Assembly: GCA_027475525.1 (NCBI GenBank)
Contig: JAMWFC010000101.1
Coordinates: 257,101 to 321,100, forward strand
Length of the DNA: 64,000 bases
Source: Macrolepiota albuminosa
Taxonomy: Eukaryota; Basidiomycota; Agaricomycetes; Agaricales; Agaricaceae
Reading direction: 5' to 3'
Of the stretch, positions 17,057 through 49,610 are shown one piece after another. The position numbers and the translations under genes are program-made. Numbering within the stretch: position 1 is the stretch's first letter; each line of letters begins with the position of its first letter. The notes under the pieces are model-generated. The model searched no databases, was not told where the DNA came from, and was given only the letters and a program-made list of their open reading frames with translations.

Positions 17057-17824
17057 TCAGACAAAGTCGGCAGTTTCAAGCGGCCTGAGCCCAAATTGTC
17101 GTCGTGGTAGGAAATGCTGTAAGCAATCGACATGGATATGCCATCTTCGTGAATTCCTGGACAAGAATACCGGTGGGGAGACCGCCCAGTACTTCCGTCG
17201 ATCAGCGCACATCGCACAATGCTCCTCCTGAATTTCCTGATCTTCGAGTTTTACTCCTTTGTCGCTATACTCAGTTTTATATGCCGGAGATCCGCGGACT
17301 ATGCGTTTGTCGTCCTTCTCCGCGTCGGGCTCAGGGCACCAGTTGGTCGGTGTGAGGAAAATGTACCCAGCCAGACGCTTTGCAAGGTGCGACCAGACCT
17401 CGGGAGCGGTCAGAGTTCGAGGATAGAGCATGCCTGGGCAACAGAGGACTTCCTGCCCAGACCGATCTCGAATTTTATAGCCATCTTTCCAGTAACTCTG
17501 TAAAACCTATTAGTCTGTGTAGATAAGATATAGACACCCCAAAACTCACGGAATCGATCCCTTCATTGATCCCACTAGCAATGTCGAGATAATCGAAACC
17601 TTTTTGGCAATCGTTGTGCTTCACCACTACAGTGACTTGTTCTTCGAGCTGTAGACAATGTCGAGATAATCGAAACCTTTTTGGCAATCGTTGTGCTTCA
17701 CCACTACAGTGACTTGTTCTTCGAGCTGTAGAGGCACAAAATTTATTAGTGAGAACGGCACTGACAGAGGCTGACAACGTACCGCTGGATGATACTTATG
17801 TGCGTCAGGCAGATGGATAGGCAT
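17057..17824 (-). CDS. conserved-looking protein of unknown function (193 aa after removing a 77-bp repeat)
   Basis: Minus-strand gene with exons 17824-17783, 17725-17550 and 17497-17057. As assembled the middle exon is out of frame because it contains a perfect 77-bp duplication (17579-17732). With one copy removed the exons total 582 nt, giving 193 aa with no stop. The protein starts MPIHLPDAHKYHPA, contains KHNDCQKGFDYLDI, GMLYPRTLTAPEVWSHLA and a C-terminal half with EEHCAMCADRRKYW and RRWHIHVDCLQHFLP. The CxxC plus HxHxxC pattern might bind a metal (inference). I do not recognise the family. There is no signal peptide or membrane segment. Confidence 0.65.
17579..17732. repeat. perfect tandem duplication, period 77 bp (A)
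   Basis: Two identical 77-bp units, 17579-17655 and 17656-17732, inside exon 2 and the acceptor side of intron 1 of the 193-aa gene. One unit destroys the frame and the other restores a normal exon. Likely assembly artefact. Confidence 0.95.
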
Positions 17825-20800
17825 ATTGGCAAGCGTCCGAGTGAGCAAGAACGAGAGAGGAGAGTGTATGTCAAGTTGGGGAGGGAGGTTTGAGCGTGGA
17901 TTGCAGCGACTGCAGGTTATTTAACAGTCTAACAGTCAGCAGGGTGGCGTTTCAGTCCGGCCACCACAAAATAAAATTATAAACAGTTCACGGTTTTCAC
18001 TCAAAACGGCGGTGTTATGAGTCCCCATTCACCGGTAATTTTACCGGTCAAATTGAGATCGCATCGACTAGGGTAGTCTGTTTGTGTAGCCGACGCGCCG
18101 AAGATTCTAGATATCAAATGAACGTGCGAGTCCGAGAGTGGCCACCTCAGGAACAGTGAACACTTGGAGCACGCATTGCGTGCAGTCGCAAGGAGGCCAA
18201 AGACAAACACAATTCACAACGTGTGGCCATGTATGATTCTAGCGAGTGTTGAGAATGTATTTTGTTCCGTTCACCCTGCGGCAAGGGTTGTATGGTGTTG
18301 GCCTGGCAAAACGGCCACAAGCCATCTTTTTTGATAAGTTCAACAACCTCGGCTCTATTTTTTAGATACCGCGGTCGCTCGGCATAACGCATAGTCACGT
18401 GATGAAATATATCCATCAGAAACGCCTGGAACGCATTCAGAAGTTTTGAGCGCCGGGCCAGTTGAAATAAACAAAGATGAGAGACATAGATCCCTCCCAC
18501 TTGAAGTCTCTGATCGTGAGTCGGTCCAAATTTACATTCATCAATCAAAAATTTTCATTGTTTAGAAATATCTTTCATTTTCAGCCTCTACCAAAGCTGC
18601 TTGACTGTCCAGCCCCAAACATCTCTTTTCGGATACCTACAGTGCCACTCGTGCCATTGCAACGAAGGCTTGAGTATGGTCTCGCTTTTCTCAAAATAGG
18701 ATCTTGGGCCGATGGGCCGGCGATATTGAGCGTTTTCTGTGCTTGTAGACATCCGAACGCTATGCGCTGATTTTCAACCAGGAAGATCAATGTCATCTTC
18801 AATTGTGTTCAAAGACTGCAGGACCGCTTGGAATCCCAGATGGGCGACTTAAACCCACGATGCACGGTCAATCAAACACGATTGTCAAAAGGACAGTGCA
18901 AACTCATCATCATGATGTGTGATGAATACACCACCTCAATTGACGAATACTGAGAGGTTTCTGCCGGTTGAAAATTGAGATACCTCCGAGGCTGATAGAT
19001 TGCGCCGCGATGCCTTGCGAACAGAAAAGCAGAAAAGACTCAAGTTGAAAGGCATAATGTTACTAAATTATCCAGGAAGACTTCATTCGCCCGAATCGCT
19101 AAGACTCCTAAGAGGATTTGGCCCTGGACATGTGGTTACGAGTTTATTGTGCGACTTGAATAGAAGAAACACATCTCCCTCGGGGCGCTCAACTGCTCAA
19201 CTGCTCAACTGTGGCTGTGAAATACAGCCATTGTACTAGCAGCGGTGTATAACAAAGCACGATTTGAGCTCGCAGGCATCTAAGTATCATCACTGATGAT
19301 ACTCTCCTTCACAGCATTAATTATGCCGAATCGATCAACATCGTTTCTAATGAGTTTTAAGAGACTCTAGCTAAGCTTATGGGGACACCTGCCTCAGCTA
19401 GTGATCGGATTTCGGTCCGTGGCTGGGTCTTTGGCGCTGATTGAAATTCTCCCGGAGACCGGGAGAGCAACCGAGGCTTCATACAGCTCTGGGTACGTCT
19501 CAGCTATGTTTTCACGAAACCATATTCATGGAGACGGCCGCATTCCCTCGTAATCGGAGATGTACAGGACGAATCAAGCGAGGGTCACCGGAGCTGAGCT
19601 GAAGCTCACTCAGCTCGTAAATGGTCAGGCACGATATTCATATATCCACCGTATCGGCTGTTTTCAAACCCCAAAAACGTTGACGCGAGGTATTACCTCG
19701 GCGTATATGTTAGAGAGAGGTCAGATTAATGTTGGCAACGAGGCAAAAGCCAAGGGTTGACGCGAGGTATTACCTCGGCGTATATGTTAGAGAGAGGTCA
19801 GATTAATGTTGGCAACGAGGCAAAAGCCAAGGGTTGTTAATCTCCGATTGAGGCCTGGATGTATGTGAGGATAGGGTAGTTGTGTTTTTTTATGACGGTA
19901 TGTACCGTACATGTGTCTACTCACGGGCTTGGTAGAAGCCATAGTACACTCTTCAGGGGCCATAGCCGGCGTAGTCCAAGAAAGCCTATCCTTTGATTTC
20001 CAGACATGAAAAGTGTTAATCAACATTCCAAGATGGACTCGTACAGCATGGGTAAAGACGTCTCGGAAGAGATCTGGAGAACCTGCAGGAGACAATCATT
20101 TGTACAGGTATAATCGTTCTAAACATCTTTAAAACCTTCAAAGGGTCGAAAACTCAAGCTTCAAGCTTCAAGCTCTAGGATTTTTGGAGGGTTTTGAATA
20201 CAAAGAATATATAGACCCATGAAATCCAAGGCTTGCTAATGGAAGTTCTCAAGTTGATTGATCGGACGGACCTTGGTTACCTCCAGAACGTCCCAGCGAG
20301 CACCCACGAACGCCCACTGATGCCCATCAGCGCCCACTCTCCTCCATTCATCCCCAGCATGTATGCCCAATGCAATGACCGGCATTTAATCTGTTGCTCG
20401 CCTCGCGCTTGCCAACGATTCTTGTTTTCCGGTGTCTATGTTCGTAGGTAGAACTGTTGTGGGGTTAGCTTATCCAGATAACGAGTCTCCACCCACACCT
20501 CAGTGAGTTTATCTACATCGGGTCGTCGTTGACTAGAATGGAGGTGCTCTCCATCATCATCAGATTTCTCCCAATTCACCCACCGTCAATTATGGAACCA
20601 CTTTTTCCCTCGTAAACCACTCGCACTCAATGCCAACGTATCGTCGTTGAAGGTACATGATCATGCATGATCCCCCGTTCGGCTCGGAATTGTAGTGAGC
20701 ATGGATACATCGATTTTGTGCTGAAATTAGGCACTGCCGTTTAGCAATCCCACGCCAACCACCTGTCAGCATGATGTGTGCAAGTGATGGATCGAACTCG

Positions 20801-21184
20801 GAGCGTAGGCAGTTGGGGCTGAGTTGAGTTATGCCGCAAGGCATTTATTAAAAGTCCTATCGCGCTAAGTATGTGTTTTCATCCGACAGTTTTCTTGTTG
20901 ATCATCAAACTTCGTAGATTCGTCTTGATATAGATAGCTTGATACGCAATATTGCTTTTGCAATCGAATTGTGACAAAGCATGGACCAGTCAGATTCAGC
21001 TTGGTATCAACTTTTACAACAGGTATAGGATACAACAATCAACAGTACAACAACCTAAAAACTAAAGCGAGGGAATAATTTACACAGCATCGCAAATGTG
21101 AGCCTGAGTGAACAACTGTCAGCGATTGTGATTACGTGTCAACAACTGGGTGGTGGGTCTGAAGAAAGCCAGTCAAGTGCCCAA
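17825..21184. other. gene-poor stretch, 3.4 kb
   Basis: No gene can be supported. Open frames such as 18147-18548 (-, 133 codons), 19787-20095 (-) and 20590-20844 (-) have plausible amino-acid composition but no recognisable family and no consistent splice partners. The stretch also holds a 77-bp duplication at 19679. Confidence 0.4.
19679..19832. repeat. perfect tandem duplication, period 77 bp (B)
   Basis: Units 19679-19755 and 19756-19832 are identical, in intergenic DNA with no other repeat structure. Confidence 0.95.
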
Positions 21185-25357: not shown

Positions 25358-25412
25358 TCCTCATGTGTACGATTGTTCATAGAGTTGAAAATATTAGGTT
25401 GAAAACCTGCTG

Positions 25413-25566
25413 CTTATTATGAAAAACCCCCTCAGCCATTATCTGCCCCAAGGTATCATTCTTAACATTTCAACAGTGCATTCCCAAATCTTATTATGAA
25501 AAACCCCCTCAGCCATTATCTGCCCCAAGGTATCATTCTTAACATTTCAACAGTGCATTCCCAAAT
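25413..25566. repeat. perfect tandem duplication, period 77 bp (C)
   Basis: Units 25413-25489 and 25490-25566 are identical. Intergenic, about 55 bp after the isomerase stop codon. Confidence 0.95.
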
Positions 25567-25941: not shown

Positions 25942-26095
25942 TAGTAAGGGACGAGGCTATCACTTGTAATACAGCTGCATGAATTACGCAGCGGATCTGA
26001 CCAGTTCACTACCATTAATAGTAAGGGACGAGGCTATCACTTGTAATACAGCTGCATGAATTACGCAGCGGATCTGACCAGTTCACTACCATTAA
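25942..26095. repeat. perfect tandem duplication, period 77 bp (D)
   Basis: Units 25942-26018 and 26019-26095 are identical, with no other repeat structure around them. Intergenic. Confidence 0.95.
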
Positions 26096-26159
26096 TCGTG
26101 GATGGTTTATCTTTTCCAAACGGGAAATGTGCAAGGGAACACGAAGCAATGGTTGCAAT

Positions 26160-31965: not shown

Positions 31966-32133
31966 GAAAAACGCTCCTTGATCTCATACCACCACCATCT
32001 CTACTGGGGTCCTGGCAGTTGTGTGATTATAGTTAGCAACATCATCTTTTCTCTCAATTCAAGCTCCTCCCTCTTCTTCACGGTATATTCGCCTTGATTC
32101 CTACTACTGCCTCACTCCCCTGCACGATGTCCC

Positions 32134-32692: not shown

Positions 32693-33433
32693 TGTCAGGT
32701 TCCGCTGAGTCGGGGGCCTTCCGGGAAAGCAACGCCCTTACGATGCGGACTTGACCTACGAATACTCGGGTGTCTGGAGCTCCGGGGCTAGGACTCCGGG
32801 GTTCAAGACGAGGACAGGGGTAATCCCGGGAGAGGGGACTAGAGTCCGGGAGTTTTGGGTTGGGGGTGGCTGAGAGTTAGAGGGGGTCGAGTCGTGAACC
32901 GGAGGTTCTAAGACGAGACCAAGTTAGTAAATCAAGAGTCGCGAAGTGCGTACCAAAACTTAGAGCACGCGAATACTTAGGCGTGCCAGTCGAAGCGTAC
33001 CAATCAAGGCGTACCAGTCAAGCAAGGGCACGCAATATCCAAGTAAGCAAAGTATGTAATATCAAGACTAGCGAATACAACAGGGAACTATGCTATAAGT
33101 ACTACGGGACCGGGTCTCAGGGTTCCGGGATGTTTGGGATGGGTTCTGGGGGTCATTGAGTAGCGGCAGAGGCTGCATACCGGGATCGCGCGTGTGGGGC
33201 GCACGATCAATTGGCACGGATGGAGCTGTAATGCGTGATGCGCGATGTCCGGGGCGAGTCGCGTGATCCGATCGTTGATCAGGGCTGGGGACGGCTGATG
33301 GCGGTCCTTGATGCGCGTGATGGCGGTGTCAGCGGTCGTGATGGTGGGGCGTGTCCTGTGGGGTCGGAGGGAGGGTCCCGGATGGTGTTCCGGAGGTGTT
33401 CCGGGGTGGGCCCGGAGGGAAGGGGTCATGACA
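32693..33433 (-). repeat. Ty3 LTR (3' LTR in element sense), 741 bp
   Basis: Begins TGTCAGG and ends TCATGACA. 726 of 741 positions match the other LTR by my count. All 15 differences are transitions and most turn CG into TG or CA. Confidence 0.95.
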
Positions 33434-33450
33434 TCACCCCCCCTTCAGCG
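33434..33450 (-). promoter_or_regulatory. polypurine tract next to the 3' LTR
   Basis: On the minus strand a GAAGGGGGGGTGA run lies directly before the LTR, the expected primer site for plus-strand DNA synthesis. Confidence 0.6.
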
Positions 33451-33562
33451 CCAAGACCCTCCGAGGCGCGCGTAGCCGGGGGTTCAGACCGGGGTCCAAT
33501 TGTGGGATCCGGCACCTGACTTGCCACGTATCGAAAAAAATTTTTTACCATCAAACTCAACC

Positions 33563-35305
33563 ATGTCACGTACGCCGACACATTCCCCGACACCCCCACA
33601 AACTAACGAGGTCGCGCCACTCATGGCTTGGGAAGCCCGGGACGCGCGATACCGAGCCCGCCTCGACCGGGAGCGCGTGGCAGAGCTCGCCCAGCAACGT
33701 GAGTGTCTTCCCGCGTCGTCCGCCTATCCCACTGACCTTCCTATTTCAGAACAACACAGCAATCCTATCGCGGGTCCCAGCCGGCACCCGGAGCCTGCTC
33801 CCGATGCGGGTCCCAGCGTCGTCCCGGAGGCCCGCCCGAGTCGTCCCGCGCCTACCTTTGCGCGGATGACAGTCCGCCCTCCCCGCCCCAGGCTACCTGC
33901 CCCCCGCTTCCGTCGTTCTGGGATGCGGGTGGGGGCCGTATCCGAAGTCCCGGAGGGTCAGCGCGTTGCGTGGGCGGACGCGACGCAGGAGTTGTTTGGG
34001 GAGGCCCTGGAGAGGCCCCAGGGTCTACCCACCCATGCCTGGTGCGTGAATAATGGACTGGTGAGTGCTTCCTTACCTCGGATCTCGTTGCTGACTTTGG
34101 CGCAGTGCCTCCACTGCGCTCGACGAATGGTCCCCTGCCTGTTCGAGGTCCCAGGCCCCTCGTCCCGCCGGGACACGTCCGTGTGTGAGGCATGCCGCCT
34201 CAACCACGAGCGATGTTCCGTGTGTGAGGCATGCCGCCTCAACCACGAGCGATGTTCCGTGTCGGCGCTGTGGAGGGCGTGCTGCGTCTCCCGGGAGCAG
34301 GGGTGGCCGCTGGGGAGGGTCACCCGGAGGATGGGGGTCGAGGAGCGGGATTGGGTCGCGGAGCTGGTGGGGGAGGCAATGGAGCCAGTGGGGGAGGTGG
34401 CCGCGGCGGATCCAGGGGGGTCGGGGAGCGGGGGTGCTATTCGGGTGGGGGGCCGGGGCCGGCCCGTGGTCCTCATCACGCGCCGAGCGACCCGGGCCAG
34501 GGGGCGCCCTGACAAGGGAAAGCGGCGGGCGTCGCCAAGCCCTTCTCCGGGGCCATCTAAGAGGGCGCGTCTGCCCTCTGAGACCCCACCCCCGGCTTTC
34601 CCGCCCCGTTTGTCCCCGGCGGTATTTTCGCCCCTGTCCAGGAGGCCCTTGGGCGTCAGCGTCGGGGACCTCCAGGAGCGCTTGGGGAGGGCCGAGCGGG
34701 AGCGCGAGGAGGAGGCAGCCCTTCGGAGGGGTTTGGAGGAGGGTCGGGAGGCGGCGCTCCGGGATTTGGAGGAGGTCAGGGTCGCTCAGGGGGAGGCCGA
34801 GGCCGAGTTGGAGTCGTTGAGGGGGAGGCGGCGCTCCGGGATTTGGAGGAGGTCAGGGTCGCTCAGGGGGAGGCCGAGGCCGAGTTGGAGTCGTTGAGGG
34901 GGAGGTTGGGGCAGGGGGCGGGGTTCCCGGAGGGGCTATTGGAGGCGGTACGCCGGGATGTGGTAGTCGCCCGCATGGCGTCGCTTAGTGAGCGTTCCTT
35001 TCCCCGGACTTGGCTCCTTACTGACACCCACAGGCTGGGCCCGGGAGCATCGTTTGCTCCTGGACGGGGCGGCCGCGGCACTCGCGGCGCTGCAGAAGGG
35101 GCAGCGCCCGGAAGTGACGACCCCCGGGGTGGAGTGGGGCCTCGACTTGTTGGGGCGGGTGGTGTCAGCCCACCGGCGGAGAAATGTGCCCGCTCCCAGT
35201 TCGTGGTTCGAACGAGTCCTGGACGAGGGTGAGCCTCTCCTGGAGCAGTTGGCGGAGGAGGTACTGCGAGAGCACGGCCCGGAGGGGATGGGGGAGGGGT
35301 TCTGA
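33563..35305 (+). CDS. antisense accessory gene of the Ty3 element: Zn2Cys6-like cluster and coiled coil
   Basis: Spliced plus-strand gene between pol and the 3' LTR, opposite to gag-pol. Exons 33563-33698, 33750-34060, 34106-34987, 35034-35305, with clean GT-AG introns of 45-51 bp. With the 77-bp duplication at 34746 collapsed the total is 1,524 nt, or 507 aa in frame. It has an Arg/Pro-rich N-terminus (MAWEARDARYRARLDRERVA); then CLHCARRMVPC and VCEACRLNHERC, together C-x2-C-x6-C-x15-C-x2-C-x6-C; a basic Ser/Pro-rich region (KGKRRASPSPSPGPSKRAR, a possible nuclear signal); a long coiled coil (LQERLGRAEREREEEAALRR); and a helical C-terminus with LLEQLAEEVL. The second half-cluster is repeated by an in-frame 39-bp duplication. 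Likely nuclear and nucleic-acid binding (inference); its role in the element is unknown. Confidence 0.75.
34181..34258 (+). repeat. in-frame 39-bp tandem duplication in the zinc cluster
   Basis: Two units of 39 bp (34181-34219, 34220-34258) double the peptide VCEACRLNHERCS. Unlike the 77-bp duplications this keeps frame. Confidence 0.85.
34746..34899. repeat. perfect tandem duplication, period 77 bp (E)
   Basis: Units 34746-34822 and 34823-34899, in the coiled-coil part of the antisense gene. Breaks its frame; collapse restores it. Confidence 0.95.
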
Positions 35306-35649
35306 GGCTGGCCGGGGGAGGGGTTCTGAGGCTGGCCGGGGGAGGGGGGCGAGGGCCGGTAGTTTCTTTTTTCGCCTTTCCTTTTTGCTGTCCTTTTTTC
35401 TTGTCGTTTGTTCGTCCTGTCCCGACCACTGCTGTAGAATATGTAGAGTAAAAAATGTATATACTTGGTTCCCCGGAGTAAAGGGTGGTATAAGGGGCGA
35501 AAGAAGACTGAGAAATAGAAGGCACCTTGCCCCGGTTCTGGGACACCACTATGAAATGGTACTAAAGAGAGTAAGATCTAGAAAGGAAAAGCAGAAAATA
35601 TACATGGGAGTTGAATCCCTACTGAGCCCAGAGGCGGGGGTTACGCCCA

Positions 35650-38600
35650 CTACTGCCGTCTGTGAGTCCTGCGCCCGGGGAGGTCGTTTCCCGGGTGCCG
35701 TTGTTGAAAGTTCCGGAGTTTGTCGAGGGCGCCTTCGAGGTTTCGGCGCGGTTCCCAAGTGTCGTCTTCCGGGCCGTATCCCTTCCACCGTACGAGGAAG
35801 TGGGGTCGTCCACGAATGTTCCGGGAGTCGAGGATGTCTTCAACCTCGTAGTGGTACTCGTCCTCGACCTCGACCGGGGGAGGGGGCTCGGGGCGTCGTT
35901 CAGGGAAGGGATCCGGGGGGTGTCGTTCCAGGAGGCGGACGTGGAATACCGGGTGCAGACCTTTTAGTCCCGGGGGGAGCTCGATCTTGTAGGCGTGGGA
36001 TGAGACCTTCTTCAATATTTTGAACGGGCCGAGGCGCTTGTGATCGAGTTTTGGGGAGGGCCGGCGGGTGCGGAGGTGTCGTCGATCTAACCATACCTTT
36101 GTCCCGGGGGCCCAGTCGGGGGTGTCTTCCCGTTTCCGGTCGGCGTGTTTCACGTAGGCCCGGTTCACGGTGTTGATCTCTTCCCGGAGAAACTCGTGAA
36201 GGGATTGGAGATCCTGGGCGACCTCGTAGGCGGCGTGCGATGGGATGTCCCGGAGCGAGAGCGTCAGTCGAGGGTGGTATCCCTTGTTGGCAAAGAAGGG
36301 TGATACCCCGGTGGCAGAGTGTGGCGTGTTGTTGTAGGTGAACTCGGCCAGGGGGAGCTCGGCGCGCCAGTCGTCCTGCAAGTAGTTGACGTACAGCCGG
36401 AGGTACTGCTCGAGGGACTGGTTGACCCTTTCGGTTTGGCCGTCGGTTTCGGAGTGGTAGGCGGTAGAGAGGTTAGTCTTTACTTCAAGTGCCTTACACA
36501 GGGAAGTCCAAAACTTGGACACGAAGAGAGGGCCACGGTCGGAGACGATGTCGTCCGGGAGTCCATGTTTGGCGAAGACGTGCTCGAGGAACAGCCGGGC
36601 GAAGTCCGGGGCGATATCCGTGGTGTGGCAGGGCAGGAAGATGCCCTGTTTGGTCAGCCTGCACACAACGACGAGAATAGCATCGAACCCTTCAGATTCT
36701 GGAAGCTCGACGATGTGGTCTAGAGATATGGAGGACCAGGGGCGTCGCCCGACCGGCAGGGGTTTCAGAAGCCCGTACGGTCGGTGTCGGGGGACCTTGG
36801 CCCGGAGGCAGGGCTCGCACGATCGAATGTAACGGGTCACGTCCTTCTTCAACCCTGGCCAAAAGTAAGTCCGGGAGATGAGCTGGAGGGTCTTACGTAT
36901 TCCAGGATGTCCCCGGAGCTTGTGGTCGTGGTGTTGGCGGAGGACGTCGTAGCGAAGTCGGGCGTGATCCGGGACGTAGATGCGGCCGTCCCGGAGGAGG
37001 AGTTTTTCGTCGGGGGACAAGGAGAAGGCGGGGTCCCGGTCGGTTTTGTCGGAAGAGTTTCGGGGGTCGTGATCGGTGAAGTACTTGTCTCGGGGAGCGC
37101 GGCGGATCTGGTTCAGGGTTCCTTCGTTGTTTAAGATCAGTACGGCATTCAGATGTTCGGGAGGGATCACCACGCGATGATTGAACGCATTGCGTTCCGC
37201 CTCGAATGACTTCTTGGGGTAGACGTCCGGTCGACGGGTGAGGGCATCGGGCTTGGCGCCAAGTCGTCCCGGGCAGTACTGAATCGTGAAGTCGTATTCT
37301 GAGAGGATCTCGGACCATTGGGCCTGCCGTCGACTGAGTTGCTTGGTCGTGGTGAAATACTGCAGGTTATTATAATCTGAATAGACCTGGATCCGGTGCC
37401 AGGCTCCCTCGAGGTAGGCCCGCCATTGCTTAAAGGCTTCGACGATGGCAAGGAGTTCCTTGTCGTAAATGTCGTAGTTGAGCTCGGCGTCGATCATGGA
37501 CCGAGTATAGAAAGCGACTGGCTGGGGCTCCCCACCGTCAGGCTCCATCTGTGAGAGGATCCCGGCGATGGCGTAGTCGGACGCGTCACATTCCAGGATG
37601 ATCGGGAGGGCTGGGTCGTAGTGCCGGAGTACCGGGGCGACTGTGAAAGCCTCCTTGAGCAAGTTAAAGACGCTCTGGCACTTACTGTCCCAGTTCCAGG
37701 CGATGTCCTTACGCGTGAGCCGGTTGAGGGGTTTCGTGATCCCGGAGTAGTTGTCTATAAACCTCCGGTAGAAGTTAGCAAAACCCAGGAAGGACTGTAC
37801 TTCCTTGACGTTCCGGGGCTGCGGCCAGTTGACGATGGCCTCGACCTTGTGGGGGTCCATGCGAACGCCATTCGGGGATACTATGACGCCAAGATACTCA
37901 ACCTCTTCCGTATGGAATGAACACTTCTCGGGCTTGGCGTGGAGGTTGTGCTCCCGGAGGCGCTCGAGGACTTGCCGGACATGCTTCTGGTGATCCTCCG
38001 GTGAGTCGGAATAAATGAGGATGTCGTCCAGGTAGACGATCACGAAGACGTCGCTCATGTCGTGGAAGATGTCGTTCATGAAGTATTGGAACGTGGCGGG
38101 GGAGTTAGTCATTCCGAAAGGCATCACAAGGTACTCAAACAGACCATACCACGTGCGGAACGCGGTTTTCCACTCGTGTCCCGGGGCGATGCGGACGTTG
38201 TTGTAACCGGAGCGGAGGTCGATCTTCGTATAAACCTTGGCACTGCGGAGTCGATCGACCAGATCGCCAATGAGCGGGAGCGGGTAGCGGTTCTTCTTGG
38301 TGATCTTATTGAGTCCCCGGTAGTCGACACAGAGTCGGAGCGAGCCGTCCTTCTTCTTGGCGAATAGAACCGGGGCTCCGGCGGCGGAGGCGGAGGGTCG
38401 GATGAATCCCTTACCGAGCATTTCGTCGAGGTAGTCCTTGAGAGCCCGGAGTTCGACCTCCGACATGTTGTAGACCTTACCGAAAGGGGGGGTGGCTCCT
38501 TCCTCGAGGTCGATGGTGTGATCATAGGGGCGACCTCCGACATGTTGTAGACCTTACCGAAAGGGGGGGTGGCTCCTTCCTCGAGGTCGATGGTGTGATC

Positions 38601-40204
38601 ATAGGGGCGGTGAGGGGGGATCTCCTTGGCGTCTCCTTCAGAGAATACGTCAGCAAACTCGTGATACTCTGGGGGAACTACTTCTCGGAGGATTTGCTCC
38701 TTGGTTTTCTGTTCCGGGGGAATAGCGTCCCCTCGTAGGTGTTCTTCCAGGAGAGAAGGCGAGGTGTGCAGCTGAAATGTGGGGGTCCCATCCCTCATGA
38801 GGCGGGCAAAGGGGGCGGCCCCAATGATCCTAATGTCGAGTGCGCTCGGGTCGATCGGTGTTGCGGAATCGTCGGCCGGAGCGGGTGTGATGCGTGTCTG
38901 AGACCGGCAGGGGTAGTTCGGCCCTTTGTACTTGTTCCGAGGAATGTTTGGGGGTCGATCGGGGGCCTTGCGGTCTCGGATGGGCGGGGGTGGTGCATGC
39001 GTGGGGGGCGCGGCAGTCGTCCCGGGGGTGTCGGGCGTCGGGTCGCTTCCTAGAGCCCGGAGGTGCACGGCGGTCGAGGGGTGGTCTTCGGGCCCCGGGA
39101 AGGTCATGGTGAGCGTCCTCCAATCGATGTCGGGGTTCGTGTCGCGCAGCCAGGGTAGCCCCAGCACCATCGGGGTCGATTCGTGGAGTCGCGTGACCAG
39201 GAAGTCGGAAGTGAACTCGTAGTTGTTGTCCAGGGTCACGCGTCCCGAGTGAGACCTTTGGATGGGGCCAGAGGAGGAGGGGGTGCCGTCGAGGCGTTGC
39301 AGGCGGAGGGGCTGGTCGAGGGAGTCGTGGGGGAGGTCGAGGGCGTCGCTGATGAAAACCCCGGTGGCTCGCGTTGCAGGCGGAGGGGCTGGTCGAGGGA
39401 GTCGTGGGGGAGGTCGAGGGCGTCGCTGATGAAAACCCCGGTGGCTCTGCTGTCGATAAGGGCCGATATCAATCCCGGGGTGCCGTCCAGCCTGGCATTG
39501 ATGACGAAGGATCGGGACGAGCGGGACTGGAGTCTGGGGAGTGGTGGGGGCTCGTCCGGGGGGTTCTTCAGGGTTGGGTTTGAGGAGTGGGGGATGTCGA
39601 AGGGGAGTTGCTGGTCGTCGGGGGTCGGGTCCTGGGTCAGGCGAAGGGTGAGGTGTCGCCAATCGATGCGGGGGTTAGTGTCCCAGAGCCACGGGAGTCC
39701 TAAGACCAGGGGTGCAGAAGGGTGGAGTTTTGTTATCAACATCCGGAGGTTGTGAGTCTGTCCGTTGGCGAAGGTAACGGGCATACGCACGAAGTGGGTG
39801 ATGTCCCCCGCCGTAGAGGCGTCTCCGTCAAAGAGGCAGAGTCGTACCGGGACCGGGAGTCGCTGGGCGGGTTCCAGGGCAAAGGTAGACCATGCTTCAT
39901 CGATGAAGTTGTCGGTGGCGCCACTGTCGACGAGGGTGTTGAGGGGAGTTCCGGAGGGGGTGAGGCAGGTTTTGAGGAGGAGGGAGTGCGAAGAGTGGGA
40001 GGGTAGATAAGCCGTGAGGGTGTCCTGTATGAGTGTCGTAGAGCGAAGATGTGAGACCGGGGCGGAGAAGACATCGGGGTCGATTCCGCGATTTAGGGCG
40101 TCTTCCGGGTCTAAATCGCCGGGTCGTTTTCCGAATACTCGTAGGTGGCGTCCTCCCCTTCGAAAGTCCAGGTGGCATGTCCCATGACCTGTCGTTTGGG
40201 GCAC
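35650..40204 (-). CDS. Ty3 pol: protease region, RT, RNase H, integrase, chromodomain
   Basis: Polyprotein of the young Ty3 element. Without the duplications at 38454 and 39294 the frame runs 1,467 codons from 40204 to the stop at 35650. In order: retropepsin-like motif [15 protein letters not shown] (about 39,885-39,930); a second copy-like motif [16 protein letters not shown] (about 39,410-39,460), each followed by a VLGLPWL segment; RT with YLDD at 38023-38034; RNase H ([13 protein letters not shown]); integrase with HHCC (HPGIRK...CEPCLRAK) and the D, D, E residues ([26 protein letters not shown]); and a C-terminal chromodomain ([20 protein letters not shown]) that should steer integration to modified histones. 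The catalytic residues I can see in RT and integrase are intact, so the element may be active or recently active. Confidence 0.92.
38454..38607. repeat. perfect tandem duplication, period 77 bp (F)
   Basis: Units 38454-38530 and 38531-38607. It cuts pol just before RT; collapse joins GKVYNMSEV to [13 protein letters not shown] in frame. Confidence 0.95.
39294..39447. repeat. perfect tandem duplication, period 77 bp (G)
   Basis: Units 39294-39370 and 39371-39447, between the two protease-like segments. Collapse makes a continuous frame. Confidence 0.95.
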
Positions 40205-43151
40205 TCGGAGATGAAATGATCTTTCTCACCACAGAGTATGCAGACACCCTCCCTTCTCCGTCGTTCCTGCACATCCGTCGGGACTTCGATCCAGGGTCGT
40301 CCCTTCTTTTGAAGCCGGTTGGCTCGGAGGGCCTCCTCGTCCCGTTCGTCGTCGAAGTCGAAGTCTTCCAGGGTCGTCCCTTCTTTTGAAGCCGGTTGGC
40401 TCGGAGGGCCTCCTCGTCCCGTTCGTCGTCGAAGTCGAAGTCTTTGGGGTCTTCCGGGGGTTCCTCAGGGCTTGGTACGTCGCCCGGGTCATGGGCGGCC
40501 ACAGCGGCGTTGAGTTGGGCTCGGGGGCGGGCGCCGCTGCCGGGGTTAGCATTGGGCGGGCCACGACTCACCGGGGGTCGGCCGCCAGGGAACGTGGGGG
40601 GACCGGAGTTCCGACCTTGGGGGTTGGGGGCTTCGCCGGAGGGCCAAGGGGGTCCTCCTCTAGGGTTCCAGGGGGGTCGGGAATTTGAATACTTGCTGCG
40701 GTCTTCCCAGTAGCGCTGATCGATCTGCATGACGAGGGCCTTGTATCCGTCCTAGGAGGGTTGTTTCGGGGCGAGTCGGAGGACGTCCTTGATACATTGT
40801 GGGAGGGCGCGGCGGAGGGCGTACCGGAGGGCGCTGTAATTCCAACCTGTCTCGTAAGCTTCCTTTTCAAAACGTACGATGAAGGTAGTGAAACGTTCTT
40901 CAGAGCGCATCCGGAGGTTGAAGAGGTTGTCCTCGGCCTCGGCCACGGTGTCGTATATCCCGAATTTCCCGGAGAACTCGTCGACGAAGGCTTGCCAGCG
41001 AGCGAGTGCCGGGTTGTTGGGGTCGAACTGGATGAGGGCCGTGTAGTGATCGAAGGCGATCCCCTGGAGGTACGATGCGGCAAAGGCCACCCGGGAGCTG
41101 TCAACCTGAAACGTGAGCGGCTTTGCCTGGAACGTATTGAGACACTGAGTGAGGAAGGTACGCCATTTTCGGGGGTCCTGGCCCGTGAAAGCGTCGGGCT
41201 TTTGGATGTCCAATCGTCCTTCGCGGGTGAGGGCGTCGCGAGCGTCGTCCGGTCCGGCAGCGTTGCGGGGGGGAGGGCCAGCATTGTAATAGTAGTAGTA
41301 ATGATTACCCCCCCCTCCTTGAGGAGGAAAAGCACCAAGGGCGGGGCCCCACCCGCCGGGAGGTCCTCCTCCGGGTGGCTCACCTGGGGGTCCACGCCCG
41401 GGAGGCCCGTTGTCCCAAGGGGGTTCGTTCCTGCCAGGAGGGGGGCCGGGTCTCCACGCCGGGAGTGGCGGAGGTGGAGGGCCTGGGGGTCGTAAGGGGG
41501 TTCGTTCCTGCCAGGAGGGGGGCCGGGTCTCCACGCCGGGAGTGGCGGAGGTGGAGGGCCTGGGGGTCGTCCTCGAGGTTCAGCTGGGGGTGGCGGAGGC
41601 GGTCGGGGAGGGTTCGGCGGTGTCGGGTCGGGCGGAGGGGGATTAGGTGCTGGGTCGGGTGCCGGGTTGCCGGAGGCGGTCGGGGAGGGTTCGGCGGTGT
41701 CGGGTCGGGCGGAGGGGGATTAGGTGCTGGGTCGGGTGCCGGGTTGCGCGGGGGACGTTCAACCCGGGAGGGTCGGGCTTGCATCGGGGGTCGCGGGGGG
41801 TTCCGTAGGTCGAAGTGGGGTGGCAGATCGCGGCAGAAGTTGCGTTCCGGAAGGGCCGGGGCGGACGTGGGGGGTGGTGCTGGTGCCGAGGCAGGTGCGG
41901 GCACGGGACGTTGTTTGTTGTTGTCGTGCGTGAGCTCGTCAATGTAGCATAGCGTGTCGTCCGTACTAGGGGTGTCCACCCGGGCTCTACCGGGGTTCGT
42001 CGGGGGCGGGGGTCGGGCGTTGTCCATTCGCGGGAGGGGTTCCAGGGGTCTCTGGGGCTGCCTCTAGGTCTCGAAGGTACTAGGAACGGAATTAGCCCTG
42101 CGACGAGTTGACAAGCGTACTGTGCGGGCAGCGGGTTGGTCGAAAAGGCCTCCAGTCAGGTTGAGGGACTGTAATATGGCTGAGGCGTTCTGCCGTTCTT
42201 CCCGTTGTCGTTGTCGTTGCTCCGGAGTGGGGACCGTGGGGGCTGCCGGGACTGCTGGGGCCGGTTCTGGGGATTCCCGTCGAATGTGAATCGAGCGACC
42301 TGGGTCCGCGGGGTCGTTGATGGGCCGGGGGGAGGGGGACGCGTGGACTTCGTCGAGCAGTTGCTGTAACTCTTCCCGGAGGATCGTATTGCGCCTATAC
42401 TTTACCATGGTTTGCTCCGGGAGTTCTCCCCACGTGAGGCGATCCCCGAATTCGACCAGGCAGTGAGCCCATTCCTCCGGAGTGCCTTCGAAGTCGTCGT
42501 GTCCGAATTCCACGAGCAGCGTCCTTGTCCGTTGCGCGAAGTTCTCTGGCGAGATCCTGAGGGAGCGGAGTACCTCGTCCTGTTGCCCACGAGCAGCGTC
42601 CTTGTCCGTTGCGCGAAGTTCTCTGGCGAGATCCTGAGGGAGCGGAGTACCTCGTCCTGTTGCCGTTCATACTCCTCGAGGCGTCGTCGTCCCATTGGCG
42701 AGGGAGAGGTTCGAGCGGGTGGAGCGGCGGCCGGGTAATGACGAGGGGGGTAGTCGGGGTAGGGAGGTCCTCGGGGTTCTCGGGGTTGGGGGACGGGGCG
42801 CTGGTAACCGTAGTAGGGGGTGGGTGCAAAGGGGCCCTCGCTGGGGGGAATCGGGCGAGGTCCACTGGGTACAGGTGGGGTCTCCGGCAGGCCCCCGGGG
42901 ATGCTCCAGTACGAGGGGACCTCCACGGGTCGTGCCATGGCTAAATTGGGCGGAGGGGCCCAGCTGGCTGAGGGCCCCAGGTCGTAGAGGGACGGGTCGG
43001 GGGCCCAGTGGCGGTGGGGATATGGAGGTTCGTACGGGAGAGGTGGGTAGACGGGGCGGGGGGTCTGCGCGGAGTAGTGGTCGGGTACCGGGCGTCCGTA
43101 AGGGTCGGTCTGGTACCCGGTGGGGTAGTAAGTGTGAGTATACGTAGCCAT
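40111..43151 (-). CDS. Ty3 gag with CCHC zinc knuckle
   Basis: Structural protein of the young Ty3 element, read from MATYTHTYYPTGYQ (43151) to a TAG at 40111-40113. Pro-rich N-terminal part, a capsid-like helical region (about 40,760-41,300, with FTTFIVRFEKEAYETGW) and a single CCHC knuckle [14 protein letters not shown] (40201-40242) for RNA binding. Once the duplications at 40290, 41417, 41594 and 42510 are collapsed, all parts share one frame, but two in-frame TAG codons remain (42064-42066 and 40752-40754). These split gag into blocks of 336, 385 and 187 codons. They may be CAG-to-TAG mutations, read-through sites, or real ends of separate ORFs. pol is in a different frame and overlaps gag from 40111 to at least 40204. 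Confidence 0.8.
40290..40443. repeat. perfect tandem duplication, period 77 bp (H)
   Basis: Units 40290-40366 and 40367-40443, just before the CCHC knuckle. Collapse restores the frame into CILCGEKDHF. Confidence 0.95.
41417..41570. repeat. perfect tandem duplication, period 77 bp (I)
   Basis: Units 41417-41493 and 41494-41570 in the Pro-rich part of gag. Confidence 0.95.
41594..41747. repeat. perfect tandem duplication, period 77 bp (J)
   Basis: Units 41594-41670 and 41671-41747 in gag, only 23 bp after the preceding duplication. Confidence 0.95.
42510..42663. repeat. perfect tandem duplication, period 77 bp (K)
   Basis: Units 42510-42586 and 42587-42663 in the N-terminal third of gag. 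Collapse joins FAQRTRTLLV to EFGHDDFEGT. Confidence 0.95.
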
Positions 43152-43171
43152 CAAGAACGGTGTAAGGAGAG

Positions 43172-43184
43172 AGTCTTGATATTA
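43172..43184 (-). promoter_or_regulatory. primer-binding site, self-priming type
   Basis: Directly after the 5' LTR the sense strand reads TAATATCAAGACT. It does not look like the 3' end of a tRNA target. It is a perfect 13-nt complement of AGTCTTGATATTA inside the LTR (sense, 43561 down to 43549), at the place where the transcript should begin, about 30 nt after a TATA-like TTATAG. This is the arrangement known from Tf1 and sushi elements, whose RNA 5' end folds back as primer. Confidence 0.7.
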
Positions 43185-43925
43185 TGTCAGGTTCCGCTGA
43201 GTCGGGGGCCTTCCGGGAAAGCAACGCCCTTACGATGCGGACTTGACCTACGAATACTCGGGTGTCTGGAGCTCCGGGGCTAGGACTCCGGGGTTCAAGA
43301 CGAGGACAGGGGTAATCCCGGGAGAGGGGACTAGAGTCCGGGAGTTTTGGGTTGGGGGTGGCTGAGAGTTAGAGGGGGTCGAGTCGTGAACCGGAGGTTC
43401 TAAGACGAGACCAAGTTAGTAAATCAAGAGTCACGAAGTGCGTACCAAAACTTAGAGCACGCGAATACTTAGGCGTGCCAGTCGAAGCGTACCAATCAAG
43501 GCGTACCAGTCAAGCAAGGGCACGCAATATCCAAGTAAGCAAAGTATGTAATATCAAGACTAGCGAATACAACAGGGAACTATGCTATAAGTACTACGGG
43601 ACCGGGTCTCGGGGTTCCGGGATGTTTGGGATGGGTTCCGGGGGTCATTGAGTAGCGGCAGAGGCTGCATACCGGGATCGCGTGTGTGGGGCGTGCGATC
43701 AATTGGCGTGGATGGAGCCGTGATGCGTGATGCGCGATGTCCGGGGCGAGTCGCGTGATCCGATCGTTGATCGGGGCTGGGGACGGCTGATGGCGGTCCT
43801 TGATGCGCGTGATGGCGGTGTCAGCGGTCGTGATGGCGGGGCGTGTCCTGTGGGGTCGGAGGGAGGGTCCCGGATGGTGTTCCGGGGGTGTCCCGGGGTG
43901 GGCCTGGAGGGAAGGGGTCATGACA
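43185..43925 (-). repeat. Ty3 LTR (5' LTR in element sense), 741 bp
   Basis: Same ends and length as 32693-33433. Contains the probable promoter: TATA-like TTATAG near 43,590 and a predicted RNA start near 43,561 (sense is minus). Confidence 0.95.
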
Positions 43926-43930
43926 GCGAG

Positions 43931-45161
43931 CTTCAGCACATTTTCCCCTTACGGTTGCTGTTCCACCAGTCGACACAGCGCTAGGCCTCAAAGGCAATGA
44001 CCTTATCAGAGTGCAACAAAGGGCAATACGCAATAGCTGTACGGTCCTTGTCCAATTTAATCTCTCTGACCCCCTAGCCCCCAAGGACTTAACTCCAGCA
44101 AACGTAGGGACAATTTGCGACAAGCTCAACAAAGTCCTCAAAGGAGCCAAGCACAATGGTACAGCCCCGGAGGATGGAGAGGTGACATAGACCGCTCAGA
44201 AGCCCCACGTCATTGGGCTCAAAACTGCCAGCAATAGTGCATTTCTGATAGAGTTTGAAGGTGCTGATTCAGCAGCCAGGTTTCGCGATCTACTAGCATG
44301 GGATCCTCCAGTCTTCCAGGAGATATTTGGTGAAAATGCATGTGCAATTAGGAAGTCTTACAACGTTATAGCCTACTTTGTACCCTGCATGGGCTCTTTT
44401 GACCCAGATAATGAGGCTGATCTCCGTGCAATTGAACTCGATAATAATTTGTCTGCTGACTCCTTAGCCTTGGCACAATGGCTCAAGCACCCTGACAGGC
44501 ATCACTCAACACAATCGGTTGCTTCCCTCAAGATCTCGTGCAATGACCCTGACACTGCCAACAGCCTTATCCGAGGGAGAATCTTCATAGGGGGACGACA
44601 GGTTGTGATCAGGAAGGATATTCGGGAACCCATCCGCTGCAACAGGTGCCAGAAATATGGCCACTTCCAAGCCAACTGTTGGGAACCAGAAGCCTGTGCC
44701 AACTACGCCGCCTCTTCACATTCACTGGATGCCTGCACATCGTCATTGTCTAGGTGCGTGTCCTGCAGAGTTAACTCAACTCACGCAAGTACAGATCAAA
44801 GCTGCCCAACCTTTGCCAAGCACTGCTCGGACTTTGATGCCCACTTTCCTGAAAATAGAATGCCATACTACCCAACCAATGATCCGCTGTCGTGGATGAC
44901 TGCCCCCCCTAAGATAGCCACATCCACCAAGTCACCGGCAAAACCCATGATGCCACCTCCTCTCCCTCCCCCAGAAACTGCAGCACAGCCCCAGTGGGAG
45001 GATCCTGCTCCACCCATGCCACAGGAACCACGACACACCTCAACAGGCAGTAGGATCCTTAGTTGCATAAGCAATCTTGACGAATATGGCTTTACTTCAC
45101 AGAATGGCACTCAGCACCCACGCTTAAAAACGGCAGGCCAGAATCAGTCAGCTCGTAAATG
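43931..45161 (+). pseudogene. LINE ORF1, 3' part with CCHC knuckle
   Basis: Continuation of LINE ORF1 after the Ty3 insertion. One in-frame TAG sits near 44,188. The region from 44389 is open for 257 codons and contains a CCHC-type knuckle (CNRCQKYGHFQANC), followed by more Cys pairs (CVSCRVNSTHAS) and a Pro-rich end. ORF1 proteins of this type coat LINE RNA. Its stop at 45159-45161 overlaps the ORF2 start by one to three bases. Confidence 0.75.
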
Positions 45162-48100
45162 AACAGACAACCACCAGCATCTCCTGGCAGGCTCCGCATC
45201 TGGCAACAAAACATAAGGAAGTCCGATGTCGCCCAGGCTGCTATGATCAATGTAGCTAACCCTGCAGATTGGGACGTCTTCGCTATCCAGGAACCGTTTC
45301 TTGATTGCATAGGTAATACCAAGGCCTCCAGATTCTGGAGGATCATATACCCCTTTGACCACCGGAGAGATGGGAGTACCCGCTCCTGCTCCATTCTTTT
45401 AATCAACACTAATATTGCTACTGACTCATACAAAATCTTGTCAGTGCCCTCAACAGACATAACGGCTGTTTGTTTTCGTGGCAACCGGGGCTACCTGTCG
45501 ATTTTCAATGTGTACAACGATTGCAGACATGACAAAGTGCTGGCTTCTCTCGCTGCCTACATATCTGTTTTCAAGGATACAATCCGACCCTCACCTACTG
45601 ACCATGTCTTGTGGCTAGGTGACTTTAATCGTCACCACCCTCTTTGGGAGACACCCAACAACCAACACCTCAACGACTCTCCAGCACGGATCCAACCTCT
45701 TCTCAACCTCCTTGGTGAATGGGACATGGAACTTGCACTGCCACCAGGCACCCCGACCCTGCAGACAGTAGCTAGAAGATGGACTAGGCCAGACAATGTT
45801 TGGTGCTCAAGTTCATCTACTAGTCCCATTATCTCCTGCAACATTTCTGCTGCTCTCCGCCCCCCAATCACTGACCATCTCCCCATAGTCACGGTAATTG
45901 AACTCCCCATACCACACGCTTCTTCGCTGCCATCAAAGAACTTCCAAGCTGTCGACTGGTCCTCTTTCAATGAGGTCTTGAAGTCCTGACTTGATGATGA
46001 ATCACCGGCCGAGGAACTGAAGGACGAGAGTATGTTTCTAGCCAAAGTCTCCACACTGACTCGGATCATCCAGGAGATCATAGCCATTGAAGACATTGTT
46101 CCTTCAAAAACCCCATGCCCATTCACTAAAAGGTGGCAGAACGACAATCTGTCAAAATTACGTCACCAACATTGGCGGGCATGCAATCTTGCGTACAAGT
46201 CCCGTGAGTTCCCAAGCCACTCCTTGCATGCTGAGGCTGCCCGACTCTCTCGTGAGATGTCAACCGCAGTGAAGAAAGCCAAGAACAAACACTGGGCCGA
46301 GTGGCTTGAAAACATCGATGCCAAACAAATATACCTTGCCAACAAGTATGTCACAAATGAACCGACTGATCTATCCTGTGACAGAGTACCGGACCTCAGG
46401 TCTCCAGGAAGCAACACCACTGGCATGGTCTCGCAGAATGCGGAGAAAGCCAAATTATTAGCTGAGTCATTCTTTCCACCCCCCTCCGCATGCCCCACAA
46501 TCCCACAGAGCGCATATCCACGACCCCTCCCTGATTCCCCTGTCTTTTTCCATGACTGCATAAGGTCAGCCATAGCAGGTCTACCCCCCTTCAAGGCTCC
46601 TGGCCCTGATGGCATACCTAATGTTGTCCTCAAAAATGCGCCAACATACTCACTGACCACCTCTTCTACGTTTACCAAGCGGTGTTTGACTTAGATGCAT
46701 ACCACCCCAACTGGCTCGAGTCCACCACGCTGGTCCTCAGGAAACCCGGCAAGCCAGACTATGGTCTAGCCAAGGCCTATCATCCCATAGGGCTTCTCAA
46801 TACCATTGGTAAACTTCTCTCTACCATGGTTGTGGCTGACCTCTCCTTCCTAGCCGAGAAGCATGGTTTGCTTCCTCCAGGCCAGTTTGGTGGTCGTCCA
46901 GGCTGTAACACTAGCGATGCAGTGCACATGGTCGTCCAGATGGTCAAAGATGCTTGGCGAGCTGGAAAAGTGGCCTCGGCCCTCTTCCTAGATGTTCAAG
47001 GCACATTCCCCAACACCGTTCGTGAACGTCTCATTCACAACATGAAGGACTGTGGGGTCCCTAGCGGGATTGTCTGGCTTACAGATCGCATGCTCACAAA
47101 CCGTCGCACTCACTTGAGATTTGATGACTACGCCTCTGATTGGTTTGAGATCTTAAATGGTACCACGCAGGGATGCCCATTATCTATGATCTTTTATGCA
47201 TTCTATAACGCTCCGCTGATATCCATAGCATGCTGGGGTTGCAAGTCTGAAGCCTCAATCGGTTTTGTAGATGATGCAATGTTACTGACGGTGGCTAAGA
47301 CCTTCCAGAAAACTCATGCGATGATCAGAGATATGGTACAGAGACCATCCAGGGTCTTCGATTGGTCTTCCTCCCACTGTTCTCCTTTCGAGCTATCAAA
47401 GCTTGCGCTAATGGACTTTGCCCGTTCACAGCACGATGCTCCGCCAGCCAAACTTATCCTTAGCTGTGTCAACACAAACGGGTCTATTACAGCTCAAGAA
47501 GTGGAAACGGTGATGACGTACAAGTACCTGGGTGTAATATTTGACCCTCGACTTCAATGGACTGCACATGCTCAGAAAGTGAAGGCTAAAGTAGCCTGGT
47601 GGACCCTTCAAATCTCCAGGCTGTCAAAGGTCTCTGGTGGCATGCCCCCCCACTGCATGCGCCAGCTTTACAACACTGTGGCTGTGCCTGCCATCACTTA
47701 TGCCACTGACGTGTGGTTCACAGGTGTTGACTCTTTCCCAAATGGAAGCAGACACATTGGTTCCGTTGCTACCTCCAAAGCACTAGTATCCATACAACAG
47801 AGAGCCGCCAAATACATCACTGGAGCCCTGGGTACCACTGCAGGTGACGTCATGGATGTCCATGCTAACATTCTCCCAGTCGACCTACTCTTCCGCAAAG
47901 TTCTCACCAGAGCCATGATTTGTATCTCATTGCTTCCTCCTGCTCACCCCCTTCACAGATTGGCCCAACATGCAGCCAAATGCCAGGTAAAGAGGCACCG
48001 GGCTCTGTTACACAACCTAGCTGCCTTCACTGACATAGTTCCACCCACCATAGAAACCGTATATCCCTATTGCAGGCACCCAAGCTACATCCCAGTCTTC

Positions 48101-48555
48101 TCCACCCACATCGACATCACCAAGGCATCCGCACTATCGCATATTGAACAAGCTTTTGCCAATGCACCGCTAGCCATTTTCTGCGATGGATCTGGGTACG
48201 AAGGCGGAATAGGAGCCTCTGCAGTCCTGTTTGAAGGTGGCAAAGAAACCTTGTCGCTGAAGTACCATCTGGGCTCTGTGTCAGAACACACGGTCTATGA
48301 AGGCGAGGCCATTGGTATTGCCCTGGCTCTACACCTGCTCCTCTCCCTGACCCGTCGCATCCGTGGGCTGACACTTATTAGTAGCAACAGCCAAGCAACC
48401 ATTCGTGCCCTCCAGAATCAACGCTCACACCCTGCTCACTACCTTCTTGATCACATCCACAATGCGGCCGAGAAACTCCACATGAAGCAAGACCGCCTGA
48501 TCAATGCTCTGAAAAGGAAGACCGCAACCAAAGCTGGTAGAAACTGGGTTCCACG

Positions 48556-49610
48556 TTCGTGAGGTATTGTCAGACTTCAAATACATTGGTCTCCGGTGAT
48601 GACGCCCAAAGTTTGGTCAGTAACAAATATGGTTATGGTGTTACCGTACCAATTGCTTGCGTTGGGCGTGCTATAAGTGATGTGGGGAGTCCCAGGCAGG
48701 TCCCAGAGAACGCGCCTGTGAAAATGGGGAAAAAGTCGGTAAGAGGGTCGGCAAGTGTAAAGCGCTAAGGTAAAGCACCTATGAAGGGAGCGGTAAGTGC
48801 ACACGGCAATGTTAACAGCAAGAACACAGTAAGCTTAGCGAAGTCTAAGCGTTGTAAATGCCTGCCGTAGCTGCAAGGCACGGATAGGTCGAAGGCTAGT
48901 GATAGTCTGCAACTGCCGACGAGTTTGACGTTGCCGACCATAAATGAAATCTCGAGCGTAAGGGAGACAGAAGAAAGGGGAGCAGGAAACTCTGGTCTAT
49001 TGTTTGATGATGTATGTACAAGTCAGTAAGTACTTTATATACTACAAAGAGTTCACCGTCACTAGTGACCAACCATTGCCAAAGTGCGGTAAACTAGAAA
49101 ATTTCATAGGGGTAGCTCCAACGGTTTCAGATCCCTACCATCCATTCAAGAACCTTAGCGATGCCAGGCAGCAGATCGCGAAGCTAAACCATCAATCCAT
49201 CACCCTTCTGTCTGTCAGAGCACCTAAGCAATGTCAGGCGCCAGATTGAGGCGCTAAGCGGTGTCAGACGCCAAGGTCAAACACCAAGCTGTCTGTCAGT
49301 TTTTGATAGATTATCAGGCTTCTCGCTAAGCGCTGTCGTCAGTGACTGATGCCATCTGTCAGTTGTCATTCGTCAGTTTTTGATAGATTATCAGGCTTCT
49401 CGCTAAGCGCTGTCGTCAGTGACTGATGCCATCTGTCAGTTGTCATTCTGTCTGCCGTCAGCGCTATCATTGATCGGATCTGCTTCTTGCCGTGCGTGGC
49501 TGTCAAATATTGCCAAAATTGGTTAGTTAGCGCGCGCTAAGGTATCCTGAGCCTGTGCCATGTTGCCGTAGCCTGCCGTTGATGTGCTGATCCTGTATGG
49601 GGTCCTATCA
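48556..49610. mobile_element. unclassified non-coding insert, about 1 kb, in LINE RNase H
   Basis: LINE reading stops after NWVP and resumes at EGFLPNERADQ. The DNA between has no coding signal and is rich in short GTCAG and GCTAAGCG motifs. I could not define clean ends or a target duplication, so the class is open. Contains the 77-bp duplication L. Confidence 0.6.
49295..49448. repeat. perfect tandem duplication, period 77 bp (L)
   Basis: Units 49295-49371 and 49372-49448 inside the non-coding insert. Confidence 0.95.

What the first reader, a model, noticed from the sequence alone, without database searches (positions are those of the whole stretch)
17579..49448. Twelve perfect tandem duplications, all with a period of exactly 77 bp
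Perfect two-copy tandem repeats start at 17579, 19679, 25413, 25942, 34746, 38454, 39294, 40290, 41417, 41594, 42510 and 49295. They lie in a gene, intergenic DNA, a LINE insert and a Ty3 element, share no sequence, and are all identical in both units. Unit length is 77 each time. Natural duplications would vary in length and diverge. A de Bruijn assembler run at k = 77 (a usual setting) that joins contigs without trimming the k-base overlap gives exactly this. Since 77 is not a multiple of 3, each one fakes a frameshift. Deleting one unit makes every affected coding segment divisible by three and continuous.
Basis: partly seen in the sequence, partly recalled or inferred. Interest (0 to 1): 0.88.

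Follow-up and report, generated by a model that had tools for sequence, protein, structure and literature searches.

The report
Assembly artefact: exact 77-base false duplications
The twelve exact 77-base doublings are very probably not biology but marks left by assembly software that wrote a stretch of fixed length twice at places where its sequence graph forked; inside genes they would look like mutations.

Summary
They are an assembly artefact. Twenty 10-kb stretches from six contigs held 24 perfect tandem repeats of period 20-500, all of period 77. The window (contig C47) has an allelic partner, C16. At 16 of 16 duplications compared, the other contig has one unit at that place. At 13 of 16, an allelic difference lies within one base of the repeat's 3' end, against 44 of 6685 control 77-mers; at the 5' end, 0 of 16. 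The side follows each contig's plus direction although C47 and C16 run antiparallel. So the units look like fork nodes of a k = 77 de Bruijn graph, written twice by a step working along each contig. Against: four imperfect pairs elsewhere, no fork seen at 3 of 4 retroelement sites read, net 76 at two window sites, one frame break without a duplication. The program is not identified and no reads were seen. Biological interest is low.

The parts
17579..17732 (+). perfect 2 x 77 repeat; single in allele C16, which instead doubles the next 77 bases, the other side of the same boundary
19679..19836 (+). perfect 77-bp duplication (run 81); single in C16; 1-base allelic difference at its 3' end
25413..25566 (+). 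perfect 77-bp duplication; single in C16; SNP immediately 3'
25942..26096 (+). perfect 77-bp duplication (run 78); single in C16; 1-base allelic difference at its 3' end
34746..34905 (+). perfect 77-bp duplication (run 83) inside the Ty3-type element
   Evidence: no comparison with other copies was made
38454..38609 (+). perfect 77-bp duplication (run 79) inside the Ty3-type element; not doubled at this phase in the 39 other places scored (40 of 595 candidates); no variant at either edge against 4 copies read
39294..39447 (+). perfect 77-bp duplication inside the Ty3-type element; not doubled at this phase in the 39 other places scored (40 of 554 candidates); next base differs from 4 of 4 copies read
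40290..40444 (+). perfect 77-bp duplication (run 78) inside the Ty3-type element; same phase in 1 of 39 other places scored (C54), confirmed by letters
41417..41570 (+). perfect 77-bp duplication inside the Ty3-type element; not doubled at this phase in the 39 other places scored (40 of 485 candidates)
41594..41747 (+). perfect 77-bp duplication; same place doubled with identical unit in C122 and C110, and imperfectly in C113 and C82, all on the plus strand of their contigs
42510..42664 (+). perfect 77-bp duplication (run 78) inside the Ty3-type element; same phase in 1 of 39 other places scored (C78); no variant at either edge against 5 copies read, which all differ six bases inside the unit's 3' end
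49295..49448 (+). perfect 77-bp duplication between LINE-type frames; single in two C126 copies (one read by letters); 8 of 9 other fetched copies are doubled at phases shifted by 1 to 34 bases
32693..43925 (-). Ty3/chromovirus-type element bounded by 741-bp direct repeats (98% identical)
44191..50213 (+). LINE-type element frames (endonuclease, reverse transcriptase, zf-RVT below its cut-off); outer limits are those of the frames only

Best explanation
The repeats are false. A program in the assembly pipeline (assembly, gap filling or polishing) used a de Bruijn graph with k = 77. Working along each contig in its plus direction, it met nodes where the graph forks: heterozygous sites between the two haplotypes, differences among repeat copies, or consensus errors. 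At a subset of such nodes it wrote the 77-base node sequence twice instead of overlapping it. Shown: one fixed length, single units in the allele, location just upstream of allelic differences in the contig's own direction, occurrence on many contigs. Inferred: the graph step itself, its one-way working, and that software and not the reads made the copies. The program is not identified, and why only some forks are affected is not explained.
For: All 24 perfect tandem repeats of period 20-500 in 20 stretches have period 77; in the window plus L006-L028 there are 43 perfect repeats at period 77 and none at other periods from 40 to 130. Perfect 77-bp repeats were read by letters on 14 contigs (C47, C16, C114, C1, C90, C95, C107, C89, C85, C122, C110, C88, C78, C54). 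All 16 duplications compared with an allele (4 in the window, 6 in L016, 6 in L008) are single in the other contig. An allelic difference lies within one base of the 3' end of the run in 13 of 16 and at the 5' end in 0 of 16; control 44 of 6685 on the right and 38 of 6685 on the left. C47 and C16 lie antiparallel, yet each shows it at its own 3' side. At one boundary C47 reads L-U-U-V-R and C16 reads L-U-V-V-R, the two sides of one fork; 3 of 3 C114 paralogues have one more A at that boundary, though two of them are identical sequences. Around five Ty3 sites 28 further second matches are displaced from the first by 77 bases, one of them with a 1-base gap (worked out by hand from printed coordinates). 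The six same-phase Ty3 recurrences (C78, C54, C122, C110, C113, C82) are all on the plus strand like the window's.
Against: 3 of 16 allelic sites have no allelic difference at an edge (17579, L016:3186, L008:7773). Of 4 retroelement sites read, only 39294 has a variant at the 3' edge; 38454 and 42510 have none at either edge, and 49295 has one at the left edge in 3 of 3; an unread copy could supply the fork. Near-same-phase duplications also occur in the opposite orientation: three minus-strand LINE copies at shifts of 1, 1 and 2 from the window's 49295, and a plus copy (C65) one base off two minus copies (C26, C12). Four pairs are imperfect (L008:5288, L028:1482, L066, L067). Edge differences of the first ten allelic sites are enriched in one-base losses, which suggests consensus errors beside heterozygosity. 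Density is uneven: none in five interior stretches of C114. No reads were examined.
Confidence: 0.78

Rival explanations
1. Plain untrimmed joining: unitigs or contigs of a k = 77 graph were put end to end without removing the shared 77-mer. Also an artefact.
For: Fixed length, identity of units and fork location. Some contigs also hold identical or equally scoring long-range copies at constant offsets, as if longer overlaps too were left in.
Against: It predicts units on both sides of forks; observed 13 of 16 at the 3' edge and 0 of 16 at the 5' edge. Imperfect pairs exist.
Confidence: 0.19
2. A special case of the best explanation, not added to it: k-mer based correction of a long-read consensus, in which a k = 77 tool re-emitted the last trusted 77-mer at residual errors, often a missing base.
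For: 5 of the 8 edge differences in the first ten allelic sites are one-base losses in the doubled contig, while the 10-kb alignment of that region has 79 SNPs and 11 small gaps of 1-8 columns; the boundary lacking an A in both contigs; L008:5288 holds one unit with AAA and one with AA.
Against: In L008, of five edge differences three are SNPs, one is a 1-base gain and one a complex change; at 38454 and 42510 no difference abuts. The window copy at 17579 also has a stop codon that the paralogues lack, so its missing base may be real decay.
Confidence: 0.35
3. Real tandem duplications made by a cell process (replication slippage, end joining or a mobile element).
For: Duplications at 40290, 41594 and 42510 recur at the same place in other Ty3 copies, and two of those (C113, C82) have diverged units, as inheritance would give.
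Against: One fixed length in unrelated sequences; single in the other allele at 16 of 16; a side that follows contig direction, which no cell knows.
Confidence: 0.01

Closest known systems
Untrimmed k-mer overlap between de Bruijn graph contigs (general knowledge, recalled; no paper seen)
   Same: Adjacent copies of one fixed length equal to k, located at graph branch points.
   Different: Here the unit lies upstream of the fork in the contig's plus direction in 13 of 16 and never on the other side, and some pairs are imperfect.
False duplications in diploid assemblies from haplotypes kept side by side (general knowledge, recalled; no paper seen)
   Same: They arise at heterozygous sites and leave spurious copies in the sequence.
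   Different: Those vary in length and usually carry haplotype differences (recalled); these are 77 bases and mostly identical.

Membership tests
k-length de Bruijn assembly artefact | one fixed repeat length across unrelated sequence | tested here: met
   24 of 24 perfect repeats of period 20-500 in 20 stretches; 43 of 43 at periods 40-130 in the window plus L006-L028; units unrelated
k-length de Bruijn assembly artefact | duplication absent from the allelic sequence | tested here: met
   16 of 16 allelic sites
k-length de Bruijn assembly artefact | unit ends at a fork (adjacent sequence difference) | tested here: met
   allelic sites 13 of 16 against 44 of 6685 controls; retroelement sites 1 of 4 at the 3' edge, where only 3 to 5 copies per site were read
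k-length de Bruijn assembly artefact | units strictly identical | tested here: inconclusive
   12 of 12 in the window, but four imperfect pairs elsewhere
k-length de Bruijn assembly artefact | reads support one unit only | not testable with these tools
   no reads held
plain untrimmed join of contigs | units on both sides of forks | tested here: not met
   0 of 16 at the 5' edge
natural tandem duplication | lengths vary between events | tested here: not met

The most novel reading that the evidence does not exclude
A cell process copies exactly 77 bases on one side of mismatches. A milder form is that a few of the Ty3 sites (for example 41594, doubled in five copies) are real inherited duplications that happen to share the length.
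Probability: 0.01. Interest if true: 0.8.

Novelty: not a real feature. Interest (0 to 1): 0.2.

Why it matters
77 is not a multiple of three, so a copy inside a gene looks like a frameshift and may be read as a pseudogene or a false intron. In the sample, 22 of 24 lie in about 101 kb of C47 and C16 and 2 of 24 in about 89 kb of the four other contigs. Taken at face value that is roughly two to thirteen thousand places in 100 Mb; this is a rough extrapolation from six contigs, and one stretch (C16:200001-210000) was chosen because it matched the window. A simple filter for perfect lag-77 repeats finds them, and the same filter at other values of k could serve as a check on other assemblies.

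Tried and rejected
Real duplication, target-site duplication and element-borne repeat were rejected for the fixed length, the single units in the allele and the side that follows contig direction. A rule that every doubled unit precedes a consensus error was considered after and not kept as general, because 38454 and 42510 show no difference at the edge and L008 shows mostly other changes. Same-phase recurrence in Ty3 copies was considered as evidence of inheritance; the common orientation (6 of 6) speaks against it, but this was noticed after the fact and near-same-phase cases in opposite orientation exist. The LINE-family search favoured doubled copies because hits were ranked against a doubled query and 40 of 1419 candidates were scored, so its counts were not used as rates. 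A weak lag-77 likeness at L020:905 (56 of 77) and ten windows of at least 75% likeness at other periods from 48 to 115 were not followed. I could not name the organism: the window has tannase, enoyl-CoA hydratase and retroelement frames; 'basidiomycete' is my recall. No claim about what is in print is made, since no literature search was answered.
Full report
Observation. A lag scan found the 12 perfect period-77 repeats at exactly the stated places and only two other perfect tandem repeats of period 10 or more, with periods 24 and 39; Tandem Repeats Finder gives the same 12, one of them with a slightly wider, 97% span. The excess of the runs over 77 is 0 to 6 bases in the window, and over 43 repeats the mean is 0.98. 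The units are unrelated to each other. Nothing like it exists at six other lags looked at.

Surroundings. The window is C47:257101-321100 of a 100,137,612-bp assembly in 129 contigs. Seven repeats lie in a Ty3/chromovirus-type element with 741-bp direct repeats 98% identical, one lies between LINE-type frames, and four lie outside both.

Genome-wide. Of 20 stretches of 10 kb (L006-L025; 10,396 bases read N), nine held perfect tandem repeats of period 20-500: 24 in all, each of period 77. They were 15 on C47 (8 stretches), 7 on C16 (3), 1 on C114 (6), 1 on C1 (1) and none on C2 and C129 (1 each). C114 has none in its five interior stretches. The starts of C47 and C114 read N, which may be gaps or withheld stretches. 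The density is thus uneven, and the sample covers six contigs, one stretch of which was chosen for its match to the window. The search tables for five Ty3 sites give further places: apart from the window's own, 4, 8, 5, 4 and 7 other copies show a second match. By hand from the printed coordinates the displacement is 77 in 27 of 28, and 76 to 77 with a one-base gap in one (C82). Each table scored the best 40 of 479 to 595 candidates. Letters were read for some: L048, L055, L064, L065 and L068 are perfect, L066 and L067 are not, and in L053 and L054 a lag-77 match runs to the end of the fetched piece.

Allele. C16, reversed, matches C47 outside the inserted elements at about 95 to 100% by piece. 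The window's repeats at 17579, 19679, 25413 and 25942 are single in C16; the six repeats in L016 are single in the window; six repeats in L008 (C47:100001-110000) are single in C16. That is 16 of 16. The other eight window repeats lie in elements that I did not find in C16 at that place and have no allele here.

Edges. An allelic difference lies within one base of the end of the repeat run at 19679, 25413, 25942; L016: 4504, 5272, 6410, 8878, 9156; L008: 918, 1831, 4255, 6242, 6881, which is 13 of 16. Where the run is longer than 77 the unit's end is ambiguous by the excess. None of 16 has one at the 5' edge. The three others are 17579, L016:3186 and L008:7773. As a control on the same allelic stretch, of 6685 window 77-mers with an exact allelic match, the next base differs in 23 and one of the next two in 44; on the left the numbers are 20 and 38; 2133 further 77-mers without an exact match and those near the window's two duplications were left out. 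Since C47 and C16 are antiparallel, the one-sidedness follows the contigs and not the DNA. Types of difference: of the first eight, five are one-base losses in the doubled contig and three are SNPs; of the five in L008, three are SNPs, one a one-base gain and one complex. The aligned 10 kb has 79 SNPs and 11 small gaps, so one-base losses are over-represented among the first eight.

One fork seen from both sides. At 17579 the window doubles U and then reads V; C16 reads U once and doubles V. No allelic difference is near, but the three C114 paralogues carry one more A at the boundary of U and V. Two of the three, L003 and L004, are identical over 3076 bases, so they are not independent. The window frame also has a stop there that the paralogues lack, so the missing base may be true decay or a consensus error.

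Repeats. At 39294 the next base differs from 4 of 4 copies; at 38454 (4 copies) and 42510 (5 copies) neither edge shows a variant; at 49295 the left edge does in 3 of 3. At 34746 no comparison was made. In high-copy elements any of hundreds of copies can make a fork, so these do not decide. Same-phase duplications in other Ty3 copies (C78 for 42510; C54 for 40290; C122, C110, C113, C82 for 41594) are all on the plus strand, where of the 39 other places about half lie on each strand. This was noticed after the fact and rests partly on match coordinates. Against it, near-same-phase cases in the opposite orientation exist: in the LINE family, minus-strand copies L030, L031 and L035 are doubled 1, 1 and 2 bases off the window's phase, though these hits were selected for a doubling near that place; and a plus copy (C65) lies one base off two minus copies (C26, C12).

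Imperfect pairs. L008:5288 has a unit with AAA and one with AA; L028:1482 matches 76 of 77; L066 and L067 differ at a few bases. A node simply written twice would not give these. One unit may come from the graph and the other from the contig, or they may be real; this is not settled.

Coding. With stop-free frames of L007, the window changes frame at 41417 and 40290, and again somewhere in 40567-40727 where there is no duplication. The 967-codon RT-integrase frame on the minus strand has its 5' end inside the 38454 repeat. The claim that all segments become continuous was not tested by collapsing units.

Mechanism. A fixed length, fork location and contig-wise direction point to a step with a k = 77 graph that goes along each contig and writes the fork node twice at some forks. 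Why only some forks are affected is not explained.

Noticed in passing
C114:3001001-3009000 and C114:2649519-2657518: Identical over 8000 of 8000 bases; the same offset of 351,482 recurs at four more pairs of matches, out to about 3,194,000, so a block of some 190 kb may be present twice. It may be an assembly error or a recent segmental duplication.
   Followed up: no
L003 and L004 (C114:2328509-2331584 and 2182400-2185475): Identical over all 3076 bases at an offset of 146,109, a further exact long-range copy in the same contig.
   Followed up: partly
C126 and C13: Pairs of equally scoring matches at constant offsets (281,388 at two regions of C126; 101,745 at four pairs on C13), again like long duplicated blocks.
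   Followed up: no
L008:5288: A near 77-bp duplication in which one unit has AAA and the other AA, possibly the graph version and the contig version side by side.
   Followed up: partly
window 40567-40727: Reading-frame change in the Ty3 gag region that is not at a 77-bp repeat.
   Followed up: no
window 34178 and 35290: Perfect tandem repeats of period 39 and 24 inside the Ty3-type element, apparently of ordinary kind.
   Followed up: no
window 5918-6679 and 10609-11469: Two related frames on the minus strand; the second matches the tannase/feruloyl esterase family, the first is similar by eye.
   Followed up: no
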